Shown: in pieces, positions 55,205 to 63,985 of the stretch
How positions within the stretch are numbered: the first letter of the stretch is position 1
How the letters are laid out: every line of letters starts with the position of its first letter
NCBI GenBank assembly: GCA_020438355.1
Contig: JAGQUT010000001.1
Location: forward strand, 124,001-188,000
Length of the DNA stretch: 64,000 nt
Direction: 5' to 3'
DNA from: Solirubrobacterales bacterium
GTDB lineage: Bacteria; Actinomycetota; Thermoleophilia; Solirubrobacterales; 70-9
Translations under genes and position numbers: made by a program
Notes under the pieces: generated by a model
The model's input: only the letters and a program-made list of their open reading frames with translations
Database searches by the model: none
What the model was told of the DNA's origin: nothing

Positions 55205-55233
55205 TTTTACATAGCCGTTGTGGGAAATATGGT
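55205..55233 (+). promoter_or_regulatory. narG promoter and candidate operator for the SufR-like regulator
   Basis: The 23-bp segment 55205-55227 reads TTTTACA-T-A-G-C-C-GT-T-GTG-G-GAAA and matches the site 63963-63985, upstream of the regulator gene, at 18 of 23 positions. The -35-like TTTACA (55206-55211) and -10-like TATGGT (55228-55233), spaced 16 bp apart, frame it. The start codon of narG is only 6 bp after the -10, so the transcript may be leaderless. The promoter call and regulator binding are inferences. Confidence 0.6.
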
Positions 55234-55239
55234 CCCGGC

Positions 55240-58200
55240 ATGGCGGATAACCAAGACTCGCGTCGCGGAAGGCAGTTCTTCAAAGGCAACCTGAAGTCCG
55301 AGGACGGATGGAACGAGATCTCCCTTCGTGGGCGCGACTGGGAGCAGTCGTACAGGGAGCGCTGGCAGCACGACCGCGTGGTGAGGTCTACGCACGGAGT
55401 CAACTGCACCGGATCGTGTTCCTGGAAGATTCACGTGAAGGACGGTCTCGTCACCTGGGAAACCCAGCAGACGGACTACCCGAGCAACGGACCCGAGACT
55501 CCCGACTACGAACCCCGGGGATGCCCGCGCGGGGCCTCCTTCTCCTGGTACGTCTACTCGCCGCTTCGGCCCAAGTTCCCGTATGTGCGAGGCGAACTGC
55601 TCGGCATGTACAGAGAGGCGCGGGAGAGGCTGGGCGATCCGGTCGAAGCCTGGGCTTCGATCGTCGAGGACCCGGAGAAGGCCCGTGCCTACAAGTCCCG
55701 GCGAGGCAAGGGAGGCTTTCTGCGCAGCAGCTGGGACGAGGTCACCGAACTGATCGCCGCAGCCCACGTCCACACGATCAGGAAGTACGGCCCGGATCGG
55801 ATCATCGGATTCAGTCCGATCCCCGCGATGTCACAGGTCTCCTACGCCGCGGGAAGCCGGTTCCTCTCACTGATCGGAGGGGTGCCCCTCAGTTTCTATG
55901 ACTGGTACGCCGACCTTCCGCCGGCGTCACCCCAGATCTGGGGCGACCAGACGGACGTGCCGGAATCGGCCGACTGGTGGGATGCGTCCTACCTGATTCT
56001 CTGGGGGTCGAACATCCCCCAGACGAGGACCCCGGATGCCCACTTCATGACCGAGGCGCGCTACCGCGGCCAGAAGGTCATCGTCGTCTCACCGGACTAC
56101 GCGGGCAACACCAAGTTCGCTGACCAGTGGCTGCCGGCCACGGCCGGAACCGACGGGGCGCTGGCAATGGCGATGGGCCATGTGATCCTCAAGGAGTTCT
56201 TCGTCGACCGGGAAACGCCCTACTTCGGCGAGTACGCCCGCCGGTTCACCGACCTGCCGTTCCTCGTCGAACTCGAGGACCGCGGTGACGGCACCTGGAG
56301 GGGCGGGAGCATGCTTCGGGCCGAAGCCGTGGGTGACACGGGCGAGCACGCCGAGTGGAAGACGGTCCTGATCGATTCCCGCAATGGCCAGCCAGTGGTT
56401 CCCAACGGAACCATCGGCGACCGCTGGGGCAAGGAAGGCGAGGGCAAGTGGAACCTCGACCTCGGCGAGGTGGAACCGGAACTGAGCCTGCTGGGCAGCC
56501 ACGACGAACTGGTCGAGGTGACCCTGCCGAGGTTCGACGGCGGCGAAACCGAGGGCGGCACGACAATGGTCCGCGGGGTGCCCGCCCGCCGGATCGGTGA
56601 CCGGCTGGTCACGACGGTCTTCGACCTCGCACTGGCCCAGTACGGAGTAAGCCGCGAAGGGCTGCCGGGTGAGTGGCCGAGCGGCTACGACGACCCCTCG
56701 CAGCCGTACACACCCGCCTGGCAGGCGGGACAGACCGGGGTGGACGCGGCGGTCTGTGAGCAGGTCGCGCGTGAGTTCGCCGAGAATGCCGAGCAGACCC
56801 GGGGTCGCTCGATGATCGTCATGGGGGCCGGCACCAACCACTGGTTCCACTCCGACCAGACATATCGGTCGATGCTCTCGCTGCTCCTGTTCTGCGGCTG
56901 CCAGGGAGTGAACGGCGGCGGCTGGGCGCATTACGTCGGCCAGGAGAAGGTGCGGCCGATCACCGGCTGGCAGACCCTTGCTTTCGCCCTCGACTGGAAC
57001 CGCCCGCCGCGGCATCAGGCGGGAACCCCCTTCTGGTACCTCGCGAGTGACCAGTGGCGATACGAGAAGTACGGAGCCGACGAGTTCACCTCGCCCGCCG
57101 GCCCGGGAAAGACAGAGCTTCAGCACACCGCCGACTGTTACGCGCAGGCGGTTCGGCTCGGCTGGACGCCGGCCGCCCCGGCGCTCGATCGGAACCCGCT
57201 CGAGCTGGCCGACGAAGCAGCTGAGGCAGGCGTGAAGCCGGCTGACTATGTGGTCGAGGAGCTGAAGGCTGGTCGTCTCGGTTTCGCGTGTGAGGACCCG
57301 GACGATCCGGCGAATTTCCCCCGAATCCTCAACCTCTGGAGAGCCAATCTCCTGGGCTCGTCAAGCAAGGGCCACGAGTACTTCCTCAAGCATCTGCTCG
57401 GCACGGACTCCGGGATCCGCTCGGCTGAATCCGACCCCGAGCACCGGCCACGGGATGTCAAGTGGCGTGACGAGGCACCCGAGGGGAAGCTCGATCTCTT
57501 CATGACGATCGACTTCCGTATGAACGGCTCCTGCCTTTATTCGGATGTGGTCCTGCCGGCGGCGACCTGGTACGAGAAGCACGACATTTCGAGCACCGAC
57601 CTCCATCCCTTCGTCCATCCCTTCAACGAGGCGGTTCCCCCACCGTGGGAGGCGAAGACGGACTGGACCACCTTCAACCTGATCGCCCGGAAGTTCTCCG
57701 AGCTGGCCGGGAAGCATCTCGGAACCAGGACGGACATCGTCACCGCCCCGCTACTCCACGACACGCCGGAAGAGCTGGCCCAGCCCGGCGGAATCGTCCG
57801 GGACTGGCGCAAGGGCGAGTGCGAGCCGATCCCGGGCAGGACGATGCCGAAACTGATCCCGGTCGAGCGCGACTACACGCAGGTTGGAGCGAAGATGAAC
57901 GCGCTGGGACCGCTGGTCGAGAAGCTCGGCATCGGTGCCAAGGGCGTGACCTGGAAACCTGAAGTAGAGGTCGGGGAACTAGGCAGGCGAAACGGAATCC
58001 AGCGGGAAGGCCCGGGAGAGGGTCGGCCGAAGATCGAAACCGACATCGACGCCTGCGAGGTGATCCTCTCGCTCTCCGGAACTACCAACGGGCGGCTCGC
58101 GGTCGAGTCCTTCAAAGTGCTCGGGGCGAGGACCGGCAAGGAACTCGCTTCGATTTCGGAGGAGCGGATCGACGAGCGGATCAACTTCCGCGAACTAGCC

Positions 58201-58908
58201 GTCCAGCCCCGCAAGGTGATTGCCTCGGCCGAGTGGTCCGGGGTTGAGTCGCGGGAACGGCGCTACTCGCCGTTCACCTCGAACATCGAGCACCTGATCC
58301 CGTTCCGGACCCTGACCGGAAGGCAGAGCTTCTACGTCGATCACCAGTGGATGCTCGAGATGGGGGAAGGGCTCCCGGCCTACAGGCCACCGGTGGCCGC
58401 CGGCCAGATGACCGGACTTGGAGGTTCTCCCGAGCCGGCTGAGGCCGTCGAGGTGACCGTGCGCTACCTGACGCCTCATTCCAAGTGGTCCATTCACTCG
58501 GAGTTCCAGGACAACCTCCACATGCTGACCCTGTTCCGTGGCGGGCCCGCCATGTGGATCTCCGAGAACGATGCGGAGAAGGCGGGGGTGAGGGACAACG
58601 ACTGGCTGGAGGTCTACAACCAGCACGGCGCGGTCTCCTGCAGGGCCGTCGTCTCCCGCCGGATTCCTGACGGAGCGGCCTTCTTCTACCACTCGCAGGA
58701 CCGCCACGTGAACGTGCCGATATCTGAGATCACCGGCCATCGGGGCGGCACCGACAACTCGCTGACCCGGATCACGATGAAGCCGACCCACATGATCGGC
58801 GGCTACGCCCAGTTCTCCTACGCCTTCAATTACTACGGGCCTTGCGGAACCCAGCGTGACCAGTTGATCCTCATACGCAAGCGCCAGGGGGAGGTGAGTT
58901 ACCAGTGA
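55240..58908 (+). CDS. narG: Respiratory nitrate reductase alpha subunit
   Basis: The 1222-residue NarG reduces nitrate to nitrite at a molybdenum bis-MGD site using electrons from NarH/NarI. The FS0 [4Fe-4S] ligands are in STHGVNCTGSCSW (His, Cys, Cys) and the later RGCPRG; the Mo-coordinating Asp is in YADLPPASPQIWG. Family-wide blocks such as SPIPAMSQVSYAAGSRFLSL, QTDVPESADWW, FCGCQGVNGGGWAHYVGQEK and KPTHMIGGYAQFSYAFNYYG are intact. No Tat signal is seen, so the site faces the cytoplasm as in E. coli NarG. ATG 55240 is chosen; upstream in-frame codons lack a ribosome site. It heads narGHJI. Confidence 0.97.
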   Translation: MADNQDSRRGRQFFKGNLKSEDGWNEISLRGRDWEQSYRERWQHDRVVRSTHGVNCTGSCSWKIHVKDGLVTWETQQTDYPSNGPETPDYEPRGCPRGASFSWYVYSPLRPKFPYVRGELLGMYREARERLGDPVEAWASIVEDPEKARAYKSRRGKGGFLRSSWDEVTELIAAAHVHTIRKYGPDRIIGFSPIPAMSQVSYAAGSRFLSLIGGVPLSFYDWYADLPPASPQIWGDQTDVPESADWWDASYLILWGSNIPQTRTPDAHFMTEARYRGQKVIVVSPDYAGNTKFADQWLPATAGTDGALAMAMGHVILKEFFVDRETPYFGEYARRFTDLPFLVELEDRGDGTWRGGSMLRAEAVGDTGEHAEWKTVLIDSRNGQPVVPNGTIGDRWGKEGEGKWNLDLGEVEPELSLLGSHDELVEVTLPRFDGGETEGGTTMVRGVPARRIGDRLVTTVFDLALAQYGVSREGLPGEWPSGYDDPSQPYTPAWQAGQTGVDAAVCEQVAREFAENAEQTRGRSMIVMGAGTNHWFHSDQTYRSMLSLLLFCGCQGVNGGGWAHYVGQEKVRPITGWQTLAFALDWNRPPRHQAGTPFWYLASDQWRYEKYGADEFTSPAGPGKTELQHTADCYAQAVRLGWTPAAPALDRNPLELADEAAEAGVKPADYVVEELKAGRLGFACEDPDDPANFPRILNLWRANLLGSSSKGHEYFLKHLLGTDSGIRSAESDPEHRPRDVKWRDEAPEGKLDLFMTIDFRMNGSCLYSDVVLPAATWYEKHDISSTDLHPFVHPFNEAVPPPWEAKTDWTTFNLIARKFSELAGKHLGTRTDIVTAPLLHDTPEELAQPGGIVRDWRKGECEPIPGRTMPKLIPVERDYTQVGAKMNALGPLVEKLGIGAKGVTWKPEVEVGELGRRNGIQREGPGEGRPKIETDIDACEVILSLSGTTNGRLAVESFKVLGARTGKELASISEERIDERINFRELAVQPRKVIASAEWSGVESRERRYSPFTSNIEHLIPFRTLTGRQSFYVDHQWMLEMGEGLPAYRPPVAAGQMTGLGGSPEPAEAVEVTVRYLTPHSKWSIHSEFQDNLHMLTLFRGGPAMWISENDAEKAGVRDNDWLEVYNQHGAVSCRAVVSRRIPDGAAFFYHSQDRHVNVPISEITGHRGGTDNSLTRITMKPTHMIGGYAQFSYAFNYYGPCGTQRDQLILIRKRQGEVSYQ

Positions 58909-60557
58909 AGGTCAGGGCCCAGATGGGCATGGTCATGAACCTCGACAAGTGCATCGGCTGCCACACCTGTTCGGTCACCTGCAAGAACGTGTGGACCAAC
59001 CGGCGAGGCACCGAGTACGTCTGGTTCAACAACGTGGAAACGAAACCGGGGCGCGGCTACCCCGTCGATTACGAGGACCAGGCGAAGTGGAAGGGTGGCT
59101 GGGAGCTGGACCGGAGGGGCAAGCTCAAGCTGAAGGCGGGCGGACCGCTGAGGAAGCTGGCCAGCATCTTCTACAACCCCGACCTCCCCGAGCTCGATGC
59201 CTACTACGACCCTTGGACCTACGATTACGACAAGCTGATCTCCTCTCCGGCCAGCGACCAGCAGCCGGTAGCGCGTCCTAAGTCACAGGTCACGGGCGAC
59301 TCGCTTGACCTTAACTGGGGGCCTAACTGGGAAGACGACCTCGCCGGTTCGGCCGAGCACGCGGTCCACGACCCGAACTTCCGCAACATCCAGGAGGAGG
59401 TCAGGCAGGGCTTCGAGGAGACCTTCATGGTCTACCTGCCGCGGATCTGCGAACACTGCGTGAATCCGGCCTGTGTCGCGTCCTGTCCGTCTGGTGCCAT
59501 GTACAAGCGGGAAGAGGATGGGATTGTCCTCGTCGACCAGGAAGCCTGCCGTTCCTGGCGGTTCTGCGTCTCCGGCTGCCCCTACAAGAAGGTCTACTTC
59601 AACTGGAACACGGGCAAAGCCGAGAAGTGCAACTTCTGCTTCCCCCGGATCGAGGCCGGCATGCCGACGGTTTGCTCGGAGACCTGCGTAGGCAGGCTCC
59701 GGCACCTCGGTGTGGTTCTGATTGACACCGACCGGGTCGAGGCGGCAGCCTCGGTTGCAGACGATAAGGACCTGCTGGATGCGCAGCTCGACCTGATGCT
59801 CGATCCCGATGATCCCGAGGTCCGGGAGCAGGCTCTGCGTGACGGGATCCCGGCGGACTGGCTCGACGCCGCCTCAAACTCCCCGGTTTACGCGATGGCC
59901 AAGAAGTGGCGCATCGCGCTGCCCCTGCATCCCGAGTACCGGACGCTGCCGATGGTCTGGTACGTGCCGCCACTCTCTCCGATCGAATCGGTCGGGGCGG
60001 AACTGATCAGGGACGGGGGAGACGAGGAGAACATCTTCGCGGCGATCGACCAGATGCGGATTCCGATCGGCTACCTGGCCAGCATCCTCGCCGCCGGGGA
60101 CCCTGAACCAGTCCGGCTTTCGCTCGAGCGGCTGGTGGCGATGCGCAGGTACATGAGGGACGTGAACCTCGGCAACGAGGTCCGGCCCTCGATCGCGACC
60201 GAGGCGGGCATGGAGCCGCATGAACTCGAGGAGATGTTCCGCATGGTCGCGATCGGCGACTACGACGACCGCTATGTGATTCCCCGCCGGCACGGTGAGG
60301 TCTCGCCTGACGCCTTCACGGCACAGGGCTCCTGCGGGATCGACTTCGCCAACGGTGCTCCTGTCCCCGGAGTCGGCGCGATGACCGGAGTGGACGCGCC
60401 GGATCCCTACGGCGGCGCCCTGGCTTCGGCCAGTAGCGGTGAAGTGACAGAGCGTGGGGCACTGGCCCAGGAAGCGCCGGATCCCGAGTTCGACATCCGC
60501 GACCTGCTGGTGAAGAGACATCCGGCGGAGACGGCCGGGGAGGGTGACCATGCCTGA
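58905..60557 (+). CDS. narH: Respiratory nitrate reductase beta subunit
   Basis: NarH relays electrons through [4Fe-4S]/[3Fe-4S] clusters from NarI heme to NarG. The Cys clusters are visible in CIGCHTCSVTC, CEHCVNPACVASCPSG, CRSWRFCVSGCPYKK and CNFCFPRIEAG. In CRSWRFC a Trp occupies a ligand position, as in E. coli NarH where that cluster is [3Fe-4S]. The 550-residue length has a C-terminal extension with an Ala/Ser/Gly-rich end. GTG 58905 overlaps the narG stop (GTGA). Confidence 0.97.
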   Translation: MKVRAQMGMVMNLDKCIGCHTCSVTCKNVWTNRRGTEYVWFNNVETKPGRGYPVDYEDQAKWKGGWELDRRGKLKLKAGGPLRKLASIFYNPDLPELDAYYDPWTYDYDKLISSPASDQQPVARPKSQVTGDSLDLNWGPNWEDDLAGSAEHAVHDPNFRNIQEEVRQGFEETFMVYLPRICEHCVNPACVASCPSGAMYKREEDGIVLVDQEACRSWRFCVSGCPYKKVYFNWNTGKAEKCNFCFPRIEAGMPTVCSETCVGRLRHLGVVLIDTDRVEAAASVADDKDLLDAQLDLMLDPDDPEVREQALRDGIPADWLDAASNSPVYAMAKKWRIALPLHPEYRTLPMVWYVPPLSPIESVGAELIRDGGDEENIFAAIDQMRIPIGYLASILAAGDPEPVRLSLERLVAMRRYMRDVNLGNEVRPSIATEAGMEPHELEEMFRMVAIGDYDDRYVIPRRHGEVSPDAFTAQGSCGIDFANGAPVPGVGAMTGVDAPDPYGGALASASSGEVTERGALAQEAPDPEFDIRDLLVKRHPAETAGEGDHA

Positions 60558-61203
60558 CCTGAGCTCACCGCTGAAGGTCGTCTCGCTCCTGCTCCAGTAT
60601 CCCGATGACGCCTTGCTCCGCGACGTGGCGACCATTCGCATCGAAGAGGTCGGGCCCGCGAACCGCAGGCAGATCCAGTTGCTGGGCCGTTTCCTCGATT
60701 GGTATCGCGCCGAGGATCCGGCGCAGTTGCGCCAGGGGTACGTCGACGCCTTCGACTTCGACCGCAGGAGAAGCCTTCACCTCACCTACCAGCTGCACGG
60801 CGACAGCCGTCAGCGGGGGCTGGCACTGCTGAAGATCAAGACGGCATATCGCGAACTCGGTCTCGAACCGGATGAAACGGAACTGCCTGACTACCTGCCA
60901 CTGATGCTCGAGTTCGCAGCCCTGGCTCCCGGTGGCCGCGGCATCAAGCTGCTCGACCGCCATCGCGAGTCGATCGAACTGATCCGGGGCAGCCTGAAGA
61001 AGGACGGCAGCCAGTGGGCGGAGCCCATCGAAGTCGTGGTCGAGGCGCTGCCCGGCCTGACCTCCCGGCAGGTAAACCGGATCCGACGCCTTGCCGAAGA
61101 GGGACCGCCCACGGAAGAGGTGGGTCTGGAACCGTTCGCACCTCCTGAGGTGATGCCTAGCCGACCCGGAGACATGCCGATGCCACTGATCGGAGGAAGA
61201 TGA
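60550..61203 (+). CDS. narJ: Nitrate reductase assembly chaperone
   Basis: NarJ is a cytosolic chaperone (TorD-like helical fold) that helps insert the molybdenum cofactor into NarG. The 217 residues show LKVVSLLLQYPDDALLRDV, LTYQLHGDSRQRGLALLKI, and PDYLPLMLEFAAL, all typical of NarJ. ATG 60550 has GGGGAGGG upstream and overlaps the narH end by 8 bp; GTG 60544 is the alternative. The C-terminal tail is Pro-rich. Confidence 0.94.
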   Translation: MPDLSSPLKVVSLLLQYPDDALLRDVATIRIEEVGPANRRQIQLLGRFLDWYRAEDPAQLRQGYVDAFDFDRRRSLHLTYQLHGDSRQRGLALLKIKTAYRELGLEPDETELPDYLPLMLEFAALAPGGRGIKLLDRHRESIELIRGSLKKDGSQWAEPIEVVVEALPGLTSRQVNRIRRLAEEGPPTEEVGLEPFAPPEVMPSRPGDMPMPLIGGR

Positions 61204-62006
61204 TGATCGCCCTGGCGACCAGCACCCTGTCGGTAGCCGCCTACTCGATCTTGCCCTATGTGGCTCTCTCGATCGGGATCGGCGGGCTGATCTGGCGTAG
61301 AAAGACCGATCGCTTCGGCTGGACAGCCCGCTCGACCGAGCTGCTGGAGAACAAGGTGCTCCGCTTTGCCTCGGTGCTCTTTCACTTGGGTGTCCTGGCG
61401 GCAATCGGTGGCCACGTACTGGGCATCCTGATTCCGCAGTCGTTCACGGAGGCCGTGGGCCTCTCGGACGAGGCGTACCACGTGCTTGCCGTGGTAGGGG
61501 GGATCACCGCCGGCGCGGCCGTCGTGATCGGCTTCGCGGCCCTGATGTACCGGCGCATCAAGTTCCCGAGGGTGAGGGTGACCACCACCCGGATGGACGT
61601 AGTCACCTTCGTGGTTCTGGGAGTCGCCATCGCCTCCGGGATGCTGGCGACCCTGATCAACATCCCGGACTCGGTCCACTACCGCGAGTCGGTGGCGCCG
61701 TACTTCCGGCAGATCTTCGTCCTCAACCCGGATCCGGAACTTATGGAAGGCGTCAACTGGATCTTCCAGTTCCACGTCACCTTCGTCTGGTTCCTGTACG
61801 CGCTCTGGCCGTTCAGCCGTCTCATCCATGCTTTCACCGTCCCGGTTGGCTACCCCTTGCGCAGTCCGATCGTCTATCGCCCGCGCAAGGCGGGAAGGCC
61901 GCAGACCGGCAAGTTCGGGGGAGGGTCTCCCGACTACTCACCAAGCATCCCAGCCGTCACGAAAGCAACGCCGGAGGGATCCGGCGGACCCGATCAAGGG
62001 TCCTGA
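61203..62006 (+). CDS. narI: Respiratory nitrate reductase gamma subunit (cytochrome b)
   Basis: NarI anchors the enzyme to the membrane and passes quinol electrons via two b-type hemes. About five helices are visible. Heme ligand His residues lie in FHLGVLAAIGGHVLG and HVTFVWFLYALWPFSRLIHA. The 267-residue length is slightly longer than E. coli NarI because of a basic Gly/Ser-rich C-terminal tail. ATG 61203 is preferred for its spacing from GGAGG; ATG 61200 is also in frame. It shares its first base with the narJ stop. Confidence 0.95.
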   Translation: MIALATSTLSVAAYSILPYVALSIGIGGLIWRRKTDRFGWTARSTELLENKVLRFASVLFHLGVLAAIGGHVLGILIPQSFTEAVGLSDEAYHVLAVVGGITAGAAVVIGFAALMYRRIKFPRVRVTTTRMDVVTFVVLGVAIASGMLATLINIPDSVHYRESVAPYFRQIFVLNPDPELMEGVNWIFQFHVTFVWFLYALWPFSRLIHAFTVPVGYPLRSPIVYRPRKAGRPQTGKFGGGSPDYSPSIPAVTKATPEGSGGPDQGS

Positions 62007-62035: not shown

Positions 62036-63214
62036 ATGAATCAAGAGAACACAGCCGGCTCGGGCCGGAACCTGATTCTCGCCACGCTCGCCTTCGCCCT
62101 CTGCTTTTCGGCTTGGGGAATGCTTGCGCCGATCGCACCGGGAATCCAGGATGACCTCGGCCTGAGTGACACTCAGACCGCGATCATGATCTCGATCCCG
62201 GTGATTCTGGGGTCGCTCCTGCGGATCCCGCTCGGTCTGATCACCGACCGGGTCGGCGGCCGGATCGTATTCACCGGAATGCTCTTCTACTCGGCCGGGG
62301 CTGCGGTTCTGGTCGGTTTCGCGAGTTCCTACGCGACCCTGATCGGCGCTGGCTTTTTGCTGGGTGCGGCAGGGGCCTCGTTCGCGGTCGGTGTTCCGTT
62401 CGTGGCCCAGTGGTACCCGCCGAGCCGCCAGGGAATGGCGATTGGTATTTACGGCATGGGCAACATCGGTACCGCTGTTGCGGCCTTCTCGGTGCCGGCG
62501 ATTCGTGACTCCGCAGGCCAGGAAGTGGCGGGTCTCGTCTTCGCCGCGGTGATCGCCGTCTACGGGCTGATCTGGATGTCACTGGCCCGTCAGGCTCCCG
62601 GGGTCAAACCCTCGCCGACCCGTTACGGCGAAGTGCTTGGTGCGGGCTGGCGGCTCTGGCGGCTCGCCCTCTTCTACTTCGTCAGCTTCGGTGGTTTCGT
62701 CGCGATGGCTCTCTTCCTGCCGAAGCTGCTCTCCGACTGGTTCGACTACTCGCTGACCGACGCCGGACTGCGTGCGGCCGGCTTCACCCTTCTGGCAACC
62801 CTCGCCCGGCCGATTGGTGGCACCCTCTCCGACCGGATCGGTGGCGACAAGGTGCTTACATTCGCCTTCCTGGGAGTGGGAGTCGATGCGATCGGGCTCT
62901 CCTGGCAGGCTCACGATCCGCAGATAGTTCCGGTCACGATCTTTTGCCTGACCATGGCCGCGTTCCTGGGGCTCGGGAGTGGTGCCGTGTTCAAGCTGGT
63001 TCCCGTCCACTTCCCGAAATCAACCGGAGCGGCAACCGGAATCGTCGGCGCTGCCGGTGGGCTCGGCGGATTCTTCCCGCCGCTGGTCCTCGGGATAGTC
63101 AAGGATGCGACAGGGGAGTTCGTGCTCGCCTTCGTTTTCCTGGTTGCCTTTGCCTGGCTCTGCGCGGGACTCGCGTCAGGCGGCATGCCCGCCCCCGAAG
63201 AGGACGGTGGCTAG
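62036..63214 (+). CDS. narK: Nitrate/nitrite transporter (MFS)
   Basis: This 392-residue major-facilitator transporter has about 12 helices. Family cues are FALCFSAWGMLAPIAPGI at the start, GLSDTQTAIMISIPVILGSL, RIPLGLITDRVGGR (the MFS loop) and the glycine-rich VGAAGGLGGFFPPLVLG near the C-terminus, typical of NarK. A good ribosome site (CAGGAGAAACTG) precedes ATG 62036. It lies 29 bp after narI, so it is probably part of the same transcript and supplies nitrate or exports nitrite. Confidence 0.94.
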   Translation: MNQENTAGSGRNLILATLAFALCFSAWGMLAPIAPGIQDDLGLSDTQTAIMISIPVILGSLLRIPLGLITDRVGGRIVFTGMLFYSAGAAVLVGFASSYATLIGAGFLLGAAGASFAVGVPFVAQWYPPSRQGMAIGIYGMGNIGTAVAAFSVPAIRDSAGQEVAGLVFAAVIAVYGLIWMSLARQAPGVKPSPTRYGEVLGAGWRLWRLALFYFVSFGGFVAMALFLPKLLSDWFDYSLTDAGLRAAGFTLLATLARPIGGTLSDRIGGDKVLTFAFLGVGVDAIGLSWQAHDPQIVPVTIFCLTMAAFLGLGSGAVFKLVPVHFPKSTGAATGIVGAAGGLGGFFPPLVLGIVKDATGEFVLAFVFLVAFAWLCAGLASGGMPAPEEDGG

Positions 63215-63239: not shown

Positions 63240-63266
63240 AGCGGCCTGCGGTCAGCGCAGGCCGCT
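63240..63266. terminator. Perfect 11-bp hairpin between narK and the convergent regulator
   Basis: AGCGGCCTGCG (63240-63250) and CGCAGGCCGCT (63256-63266) pair perfectly around a 5-nt loop. It overlaps the last codons of the convergent regulator gene. No T-tract is seen, so a bidirectional terminator or 3'-end stabiliser is likely. Confidence 0.6.
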
Positions 63267-63911
63267 GGCGGTGACCAGGCAGCCGGCCCGGTCGGGATCC
63301 TTGATCTCGAATCCCGTGAGGGTCGCCCCCGGCTTCAGAGACTCGATCAGCCCGGCCGTTATGCCGCGGTGCAGTCCGCAGATCAGCGCCTGGCCGTTCC
63401 GTGCCGTCTCGCGGTAAGGGCAGTTCGTGAGGCAGTAGGTGACCTCGTAGCCACTCGTGCCAGCGGGCCGGGGCTGGAATCCCATCGCCGCCAGCGCGTC
63501 GCGGAGCCTCGACTCCGGGTCCCCGTTCACTTCCTGGCCGTCGGTCAGCTTCATACCGATGCTGCGCCCGAGCTCCTCAATTCCCCGCGGATCGGCGACC
63601 CCGCGATCGACCGCCTCGACCAGCCACTCACTCAGGTCGTCGTATGCGGTCGGGGCCTCGCCGCCCGGACGCGCGGCCGGGTCGATCGCCCAGAGATCGC
63701 GGGGCCGGCCCCTGCCCTGGCGTTCGCGCTCCCTAAGTACGACCCCGGCCCGGGCCATCGCCTCGAGATGGTTCCGGACTCCGTTCGGGTGAAGTCCGAG
63801 CCGCTCCGACAGCTCGACCGTGGGGGCCGGACGCTTCAGCTCCCGGAGCAGCTCAAAGAGGCTTGCCCTGGTGGGCTGGGAGAGCACGTTTGCAGCTGTC
63901 TCGTTCGACAT
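63252..63911 (-). CDS. SufR-like winged-helix regulator with four-Cys Fe-S motif
   Basis: The 219-residue ArsR/DeoR-like regulator has an N-terminal winged helix (SQPTRASLFELLRELKRPAP; HPNGVRNHLEAMARAGVV) and a C-terminal sensor domain with C160, C164 (YCLTNCPY), C178 (LICGLHRG) and C211 (DRAGCLV). The C-x3-C-x13-C-x32-C arrangement and the NCPY and GC motifs resemble the Fe-S repressor SufR family. ATG 63911 (MSNETAAN) is chosen over a TTG 21 bp upstream. It is convergent with narK, and its upstream region carries the same 23-bp site found before narG. Role in nitrate-respiration control is inferred. Confidence 0.85.
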   Translation of the reverse strand: MSNETAANVLSQPTRASLFELLRELKRPAPTVELSERLGLHPNGVRNHLEAMARAGVVLRERERQGRGRPRDLWAIDPAARPGGEAPTAYDDLSEWLVEAVDRGVADPRGIEELGRSIGMKLTDGQEVNGDPESRLRDALAAMGFQPRPAGTSGYEVTYCLTNCPYRETARNGQALICGLHRGITAGLIESLKPGATLTGFEIKDPDRAGCLVTASGLR

Positions 63912-63962
63912 CCTGGTTCGACATTCTCCCAAACGACGGGTTACGAACGCTTTGCTCTAGAC

Positions 63963-63985
63963 TTTTACACAACAGTGGTGTGAAA
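63963..63985. promoter_or_regulatory. Candidate operator for the SufR-like regulator (own promoter)
   Basis: The segment reads TTTTACA-C-A-A-C-A-GT-G-GTG-T-GAAA on the plus strand. On the minus strand a -35-like TTGTTT and a -10-like TAAAAG flank it, spaced 17 bp apart, so a bound regulator would sit between the promoter boxes. The TTTTACAC and GTGTGAAAA ends are nearly inverted. Its match to the narG site (18/23) supports autoregulation. Confidence 0.6.

What the first reader, a model, noticed from the sequence alone, without database searches (positions are those of the whole stretch)
63252..63985. SufR-like Fe-S regulator linked to nitrate respiration by a shared 23-bp operator
The regulator (four Cys, ArsR/SufR-like) is convergent with narK. 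A 23-bp motif, TTTTACA-N-A-N-C-N-GT-N-GTG-N-GAAA, occurs upstream of its own start and again upstream of narG (55205-55227), identical at 18 of 23 positions. In both places it overlaps plausible promoter boxes. SufR-family repressors are known for Fe-S biogenesis; control of narGHJI-narK by a SufR-like sensor would be a distinct nitrate-respiration switch sensing O2, NO or Fe-S status. The link between protein and site is inference.
Basis: partly seen in the sequence, partly recalled or inferred. Interest (0 to 1): 0.82.

Follow-up and report, generated by a model that had tools for sequence, protein, structure and literature searches.

The report
ArnR-like iron-sulfur switch for nitrate respiration
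An uncultured actinobacterium carries a probable iron-sulfur repressor, a distant cousin of the nitric-oxide sensor ArnR of Corynebacterium, whose palindromic binding site sits in front of its own gene, a ferredoxin gene and the nitrate-respiration genes, so it probably switches nitrate respiration and nitric-oxide defence on together.

Summary
The two 23-bp sites are real, identical at 18 of 23 positions and not chance. The site beside the regulator is a near-palindrome (family consensus TTTYACA-N9-TGTRAAA) between the regulator and a divergent ferredoxin-hemerythrin pair just past the window edge. A matrix trained on other genomes' regulator promoters, with the window's clade left out, ranks the narG site 1st (24.9) and the regulator site 2nd (24.2) in all 64 kb; the next separate site scores 11.3. 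Across Solirubrobacterales the operator marks regulator and ferredoxin promoters, plus RIC/ScdA, DUF2249 and some narG/narK promoters: a nitric-oxide/denitrification regulon. Regulator and NarG co-occur (p = 3e-7, not corrected for phylogeny). 'SufR-like' needs correcting: three Cys plus a His are invariant, the fold is wHTH plus TRAPPC3-like, and nar-linked Corynebacterium ArnR is closer than SufR. ArnR, a [4Fe-4S] NO-sensing nar repressor, is the precedent (PMC12343034). This is a separate clade with a palindromic operator and a broader regulon. More than half of same-genus relatives with NarG lack a clear nar site; cluster, NO sensing and binding are inferred.

The parts
63252..63911 (-). 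wHTH regulator, ArnR-like (C171/C185/C218 and H188 invariant in TTG-start numbering; ORF open to TTG 63932)
   Evidence: ORF; Pfam HTH_20 3.3e-9; family alignment; AF2 model pLDDT 86 with TRAPPC3/Bet3-like C-terminal domain
63963..63985 (.). near-palindromic operator TTTTACACAACAGTGGTGTGAAA in the divergent promoter between the regulator and a ferredoxin gene (ferredoxin begins at window position 64011, outside the window)
   Evidence: same palindrome upstream of most relatives' regulators and of 48 of 54 ferredoxin genes
55205..55227 (+). operator TTTTACATAGCCGTTGTGGGAAA at the narG promoter, 12 bp before ATG 55240
   Evidence: highest-scoring site in the whole window with a matrix trained without this clade; weaker sites at narG in G006, G002, G004 and G008
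55206..55233 (+). sigma-70-like promoter TTTACA-N16-TATGGT overlapped by the operator; would give an almost leaderless narG mRNA
   Evidence: 1 found, 0.0 in shuffles; consensus match only
55240..58908 (+). narG, respiratory nitrate reductase alpha subunit
   Evidence: TIGR01580 1753 bits, cut-off 1084
58905..60557 (+). narH
   Evidence: ORF and position in the operon
60544..61203 (+). narJ
   Evidence: PF02613 1.1e-12
61200..62006 (+). narI
   Evidence: PF02665 2.3e-75
62036..63214 (+). narK, nitrate/nitrite transporter, convergent with the regulator
   Evidence: MFS_1 1.9e-38; best NCBIfam match TIGR00886 NarK family, 234 bits, below its cut-off of 311.7

Best explanation
The gene encodes a (by homology dimeric) winged-helix repressor of the ArnR type. 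Its C-terminal TRAPPC3-like domain probably holds a [4Fe-4S] cluster through three invariant Cys and perhaps the invariant His. With an intact cluster it binds the palindrome TTTYACA-N9-TGTRAAA over promoters and blocks RNA polymerase. Its core targets are its own gene and a divergent FdxA-like ferredoxin-hemerythrin unit; in this genome it also controls narGHJI-narK through the site at 55205-55227. Nitric oxide, which builds up when nitrate is respired at low O2, or loss of Fe-S supply would damage the cluster, release the operator and switch on nitrate respiration together with Fe-S and NO protection. Shown by computation: sites, conservation, co-occurrence, predicted fold, homology to ArnR. 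Inferred: binding, the cluster, NO sensing, repression.
For: Leave-clade-out matrix ranks the two sites 1 and 2 in 64 kb; its information content is 16.8 bits versus 9.1-11.0 for 25 null trainings. Operator at 48 of 54 ferredoxin promoters versus 13 of 451 other genes. Other sites precede RIC/ScdA (PF04405/PF01814), DUF2249, a multicopper protein and a conserved membrane protein. narG/narK sites in the window, G006, G002, G004, G008, L085, L120. Regulator-NarG co-occurrence: 19 both, 6 and 4 single, 32 neither, p = 2.9e-7; own genus 12 of 13 versus 0 of 5. In several lineages the regulator directly follows narI or clusters with nar, membrane protein, hemerythrin and ferredoxin (L105, L109, L120). 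Homology to Corynebacterium nar-linked proteins with Cys 179/193/223, exactly the ArnR ligands of PMC12343034. wHTH + TRAPPC3-like fold, as reported for ArnR.
Against: Of 12 same-genus genomes with NarG only 5, window included, score 10 or more at narG, and the other four look like one inherited promoter, so they are not independent. The weaker narG sites overlap promoter hexamers and may owe part of their score to them. Genomes are not independent in the Fisher tests. No binding, cluster or NO data exist. A paralog is present (C133), so which protein binds which site is not proven. Three Rrf2 proteins are also present and could act on nar or NO genes.
Confidence: 0.78

Rival explanations
1. 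The regulator controls only itself and the ferredoxin unit; the narG similarity is a chance or promoter-derived resemblance, and nar is governed by another factor.
For: Most relatives with regulator and NarG lack a strong narG site; the narG site overlaps -35/-10 boxes.
Against: The narG site is the single best match in the window to an independently trained matrix (24.9, next separate non-regulator site 11.3); other nar sites in L085 (19.1) and at L120 narK (21.0); regulator and NarG co-occur.
Confidence: 0.15
2. A true SufR that senses Fe-S status and mainly controls Fe-S biogenesis, with nar as a side target.
For: Weak SufR_cyano match (E 0.002); same wHTH superfamily; suf-linked SufR proteins of other Actinomycetota match the family model at 37-50 bits; DUF59-like genes at two operator sites (named by eye).
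Against: SufR set apart by a long 100/100 branch; far below the TIGR02702 cut-off; own suf locus has no homolog; regulon dominated by ferredoxin, RIC, DUF2249 and nar.
Confidence: 0.08
3. The palindrome is the site of another factor, such as a CRP/FNR-type or Rrf2 regulator, or an inverted pair of DnaA-box-like sequences, and only happens to lie beside the regulator.
For: TTTTACACA resembles a DnaA box (own knowledge); three Rrf2 genes exist in the genome.
Against: Motif presence tracks the regulator gene (16 of 25 regulator-positive genomes versus 2 of 36 others, p = 1e-6) and moves with it across genera and gene orders; the arms are in the opposite order to CRP (TGTGA-N6-TCACA, own knowledge); Rrf2 genes occur in all 18 same-genus genomes, with or without nar.
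Confidence: 0.05

Closest known systems
ArnR of Corynebacterium glutamicum ([4Fe-4S], NO-responsive repressor of narKGHJI and hmp; PMC12343034)
   Same: wHTH plus TRAPPC3-like sensory domain; three conserved Cys (spacing 14 and about 30 residues) with a conserved His nearby; gene beside the nar operon; homologous along most of the length
   Different: Separate clade (97/97), Corynebacterium orthologs only 71-73 bits to the family model; palindromic TTTYACA-N9-TGTRAAA operator; core targets are the regulator itself and a ferredoxin, with hemerythrin, RIC, DUF2249 and a membrane protein added; autoregulation predicted
SufR of Actinomycetota and cyanobacteria (repressor of suf operons; PMC8593673)
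   Same: wHTH with C-terminal Cys cluster; autoregulation through a promoter palindrome
   Different: Different clade, Cys pattern, operator (CAAC-N6-GTTG in cyanobacteria) and genomic place; not at suf
NsrR/DNR/HcpR regulons for nitrogen oxides (PMC1274295)
   Same: Overlapping targets: dnrN (RIC), COG4309 (DUF2249, own knowledge), nirK and other NO genes
   Different: Unrelated regulator families (Rrf2, CRP/FNR) and different sites
Rv2621c of Mycobacterium tuberculosis (ArnR-like by fold, function unknown; PMC12343034)
   Same: Described as ArnR-like; in some Mycobacteriales genomes a homolog of the present family lies near a ferredoxin gene (L233, L232)
   Different: Those homologs share only about 30% identity; whether they are Rv2621c orthologs was not tested; targets unknown

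Membership tests
ArnR | wHTH DNA-binding domain plus TRAPPC3-like C-terminal sensory domain | tested here: met
   HTH_20; AF2 model pLDDT 86.4; Foldseek hits to ArsR-type and Bet3/TRAPPC3 chains, E about 1e-5 to 1e-3
ArnR | three conserved Cys (179/193/223) with a conserved His nearby | tested here: met
   C171, C185, C218, H188 invariant in 23 sequences; Corynebacterium orthologs have Cys 179/193/223
ArnR | gene linked to the respiratory nitrate reductase operon | tested here: met
   window; L038, L042, L050, L052, L056, L098, L105, L109, L113, L115, L120
ArnR | orthology with Corynebacterium ArnR | tested here: not met
   separate clades in the tree; homologous but not the same group, so filed as ArnR-like, not as ArnR
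ArnR | binds a [4Fe-4S] cluster and loses DNA binding on nitrosylation | not testable with these tools
   needs anaerobic purification and spectroscopy
ArnR | controls nar operon and hmp | tested here: inconclusive
   operator at narG; hmp was not searched for
SufR | matches the SufR equivalog model TIGR02702 above cut-off | tested here: not met
   17.7 bits versus cut-off 178.8
SufR | located at and controlling the suf operon | tested here: not met
   own suf locus L255: no homolog; only one weak 12.7 motif match there
SufR | member of the SufR clade | tested here: not met
   SufR rows on a separate 100/100 branch of length 2.99

The most novel reading that the evidence does not exclude
ArnR of Corynebacterium is one branch of a phylum-wide class of Fe-S, NO-responsive wHTH/TRAPPC3-fold repressors. 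In Thermoleophilia this class does the work of FNR/NsrR: an autoregulated ferredoxin-hemerythrin feedback unit is its ancestral core, and narGHJI, RIC, DUF2249 and copper enzymes are recruited to it lineage by lineage by gaining the palindrome.
Probability: 0.45. Interest if true: 0.68.

Novelty: new variant of a known kind. Interest (0 to 1): 0.56.

Why it matters
How nitrate respiration and NO defence are switched in the deep-branching, mostly uncultured Thermoleophilia is not described in the papers I could search. This gives a concrete regulator, its operator and a predicted regulon that can be tested in cultured Conexibacter or Paraconexibacter. It would carry the ArnR mechanism, known only from Corynebacterium, to a second class of Actinomycetota and suggest that a ferredoxin rather than nar or hmp is the core target.

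Tried and rejected
Counting sites scoring 10 or more after training is not a fair test: null trainings on random windows also reach 28-48 of 67 through overfitting (observed 50 of 67), so I rely on information content, on the leave-clade-out ranking and on genes outside the training set. The site on C71 (TTTTCCACACTATTCGTGGGAAA) was rejected as a target because it lies between two convergent genes. The site at C45 about 197390 (ATTCACACTAATATTGTGAATAT) has a shorter arm spacing and was not counted. Repeated TTTTSCACG...CGTGSAAAA sites in G034 and TTTTCCACA...TGTGGAAAA in G015 look like other factors' sites. The 9-gene cluster mixes DUF2249 and RIC proteins; one search separates them. The suf locus as a target was rejected. 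The membrane protein 'MEM2' matches no Pfam or NCBIfam family and I do not name it NnrS. The repeat finder did not list the operator as an inverted repeat because its arms have mismatches; the pairing was read by eye.

Full report
Observation. The 23-bp pattern is present exactly at 55205-55227 and 63963-63985; 3 matches with up to 3 mismatches against 0.01 expected. In the 2.6-Mb genome two more places match loosely. One, TATTACACAACTAGTGTGTAAAA on C133, lies between a paralog of the regulator (44% identity) and a cupin gene. The other lies between two convergent genes and is probably not functional. The two window sites are identical at 18 of 23 positions.

The window ends inside a divergent promoter. 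Past its edge (window position 64011) lies a 4Fe-4S ferredoxin (best NCBIfam matches FdxA_Actino and FdxA_Protbact, below cut-off) followed by a hemerythrin-domain protein (PF01814 6.5e-13; sequence). The 63963 site is therefore a shared operator of the regulator and this ferredoxin unit, and it is nearly palindromic (9 of 11 pairs).

The family. Regulator homologs occur in many Solirubrobacterales genomes. In 62 named loci and some 35 loci from relatives the regulator usually sits beside the ferredoxin, a hemerythrin or a polytopic membrane protein and, in many lineages, near narGHJI or narK. In L105, L109 and L120 it directly follows narI, and L120 has narK, narG, narH, narI, regulator, membrane protein, hemerythrin and ferredoxin in one run. 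Invariant residues in 23 aligned sequences include C171, C185, C218 and H188; the fourth Cys, C167, is not conserved.

The operator. Expectation-maximisation on upstream regions of 74 regulators gives a palindrome TTTYACA-N9-TGTRAAA. With the window's clade left out and a neutral seed the same motif returns with 16.8 bits of information; 25 trainings on random windows give 9.1-11.0 bits. That independent matrix ranks 55205 first (24.9) and 63963 second (24.2) in all 64,000 bases; the next non-overlapping site scores 11.3. It also scores narG of G006 (17.9), narG of G002 (16.8), narK of L120 (20.6), narG of L085 (20.0) and the cupin site (21.5). 48 of 54 ferredoxin promoters score 10 or more, against 13 of 451 other genes; many of these ferredoxin sites are shared with the regulator and so are not independent of the training, but several are not adjacent to it (L045, L051, L082, L088, L125).

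The nar link. Of 28 narG upstream regions in relatives and the window, excluding the window 7 of 27 score 10 or more versus 11 of 420 background genes (p = 2.7e-5). Four of the seven are same-genus promoters that look orthologous, and among 12 same-genus genomes with narG only 5 have a site, the window included. So the nar site is a real but lineage-dependent part of the regulon. Regulator and NarG co-occur: 19 genomes with both, 6 regulator only, 4 NarG only, 32 neither, p = 2.9e-7; outside the own genus p = 0.005; inside it 12 of 13 versus 0 of 5. Motif and regulator co-occur with p = 1e-6. These tests ignore phylogeny.

Wider regulon. Sites of 14 or more precede RIC/ScdA di-iron repair proteins (PF04405 + PF01814), DUF2249 proteins, the membrane protein, hemerythrin, a multicopper protein (G017), DUF59-like genes and others. 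dnrN (RIC), COG4309, nirK and nnrS are members of NO-responsive regulons in other bacteria (PMC1274295). The composition argues for NO or nitrogen-oxide stress rather than Fe-S biogenesis in general.

What it is. The protein matches HTH_20 and only weakly SufR. Suf-linked SufR proteins score 37-50 bits. A tree of 49 proteins puts the window family in its own clade (97/97), ArnR in another, and SufR on a long 100/100 branch; the root is only a midpoint. The AlphaFold model (pLDDT 86) matches ArsR-type wHTH chains and Bet3/TRAPPC3 chains, the combination reported for ArnR.

Mechanism. By homology the holo [4Fe-4S] dimer represses; nitrosylation of the cluster releases DNA (shown for ArnR, PMC12343034; inferred here). 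At narG the operator covers -35 TTTACA and the spacer up to -10 TATGGT, which fits repression. Binding, cluster and signal remain untested, and the paralog on C133 may share or divide the sites.

Verdict. The label should change from SufR-like to ArnR-like. The control of nar by such a protein has a precedent, while the palindromic operator, the ferredoxin core and the broader regulon appear to be undescribed in the papers I could search. It is a new variant of a known kind.

Noticed in passing
G000 C133:80821-81547 (L036 10322-11048): Paralog of the regulator (44% identity) with its own palindromic site upstream of a cupin gene, and a second FdxA-like ferredoxin plus membrane protein on the other side.
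   Followed up: partly
window 55227-55240: narG operator and promoter end 7-12 bp before ATG 55240, suggesting a leaderless narG mRNA, whereas same-genus relatives with a site have about 95 bp between site and start.
   Followed up: no
L233 9825-10725 and L232 5109-7868 (genomes of the family of G340, probably Mycobacteriales): Homologs of the regulator near ferredoxin genes in another actinobacterial family, suggesting that the ferredoxin link is older than Thermoleophilia.
   Followed up: no
G034 C22, C35, C88, C89: Several copies of another palindrome, TTTTSCACG-N5-CGTGSAAAA, probably the site of a different regulator.
   Followed up: no
L036 8964-10250 and homologs ('MEM2'): Conserved polytopic membrane protein with a GTLHTFxPSLT stretch, linked to regulator and operator but without any Pfam or NCBIfam match.
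   Followed up: partly
G000 C45:235961 and C45:36403, C67:53264: Three Rrf2-family regulators occur in the genome, one about 19 kb from sufB; all 18 same-genus genomes have such genes whether or not they have narG.
   Followed up: no
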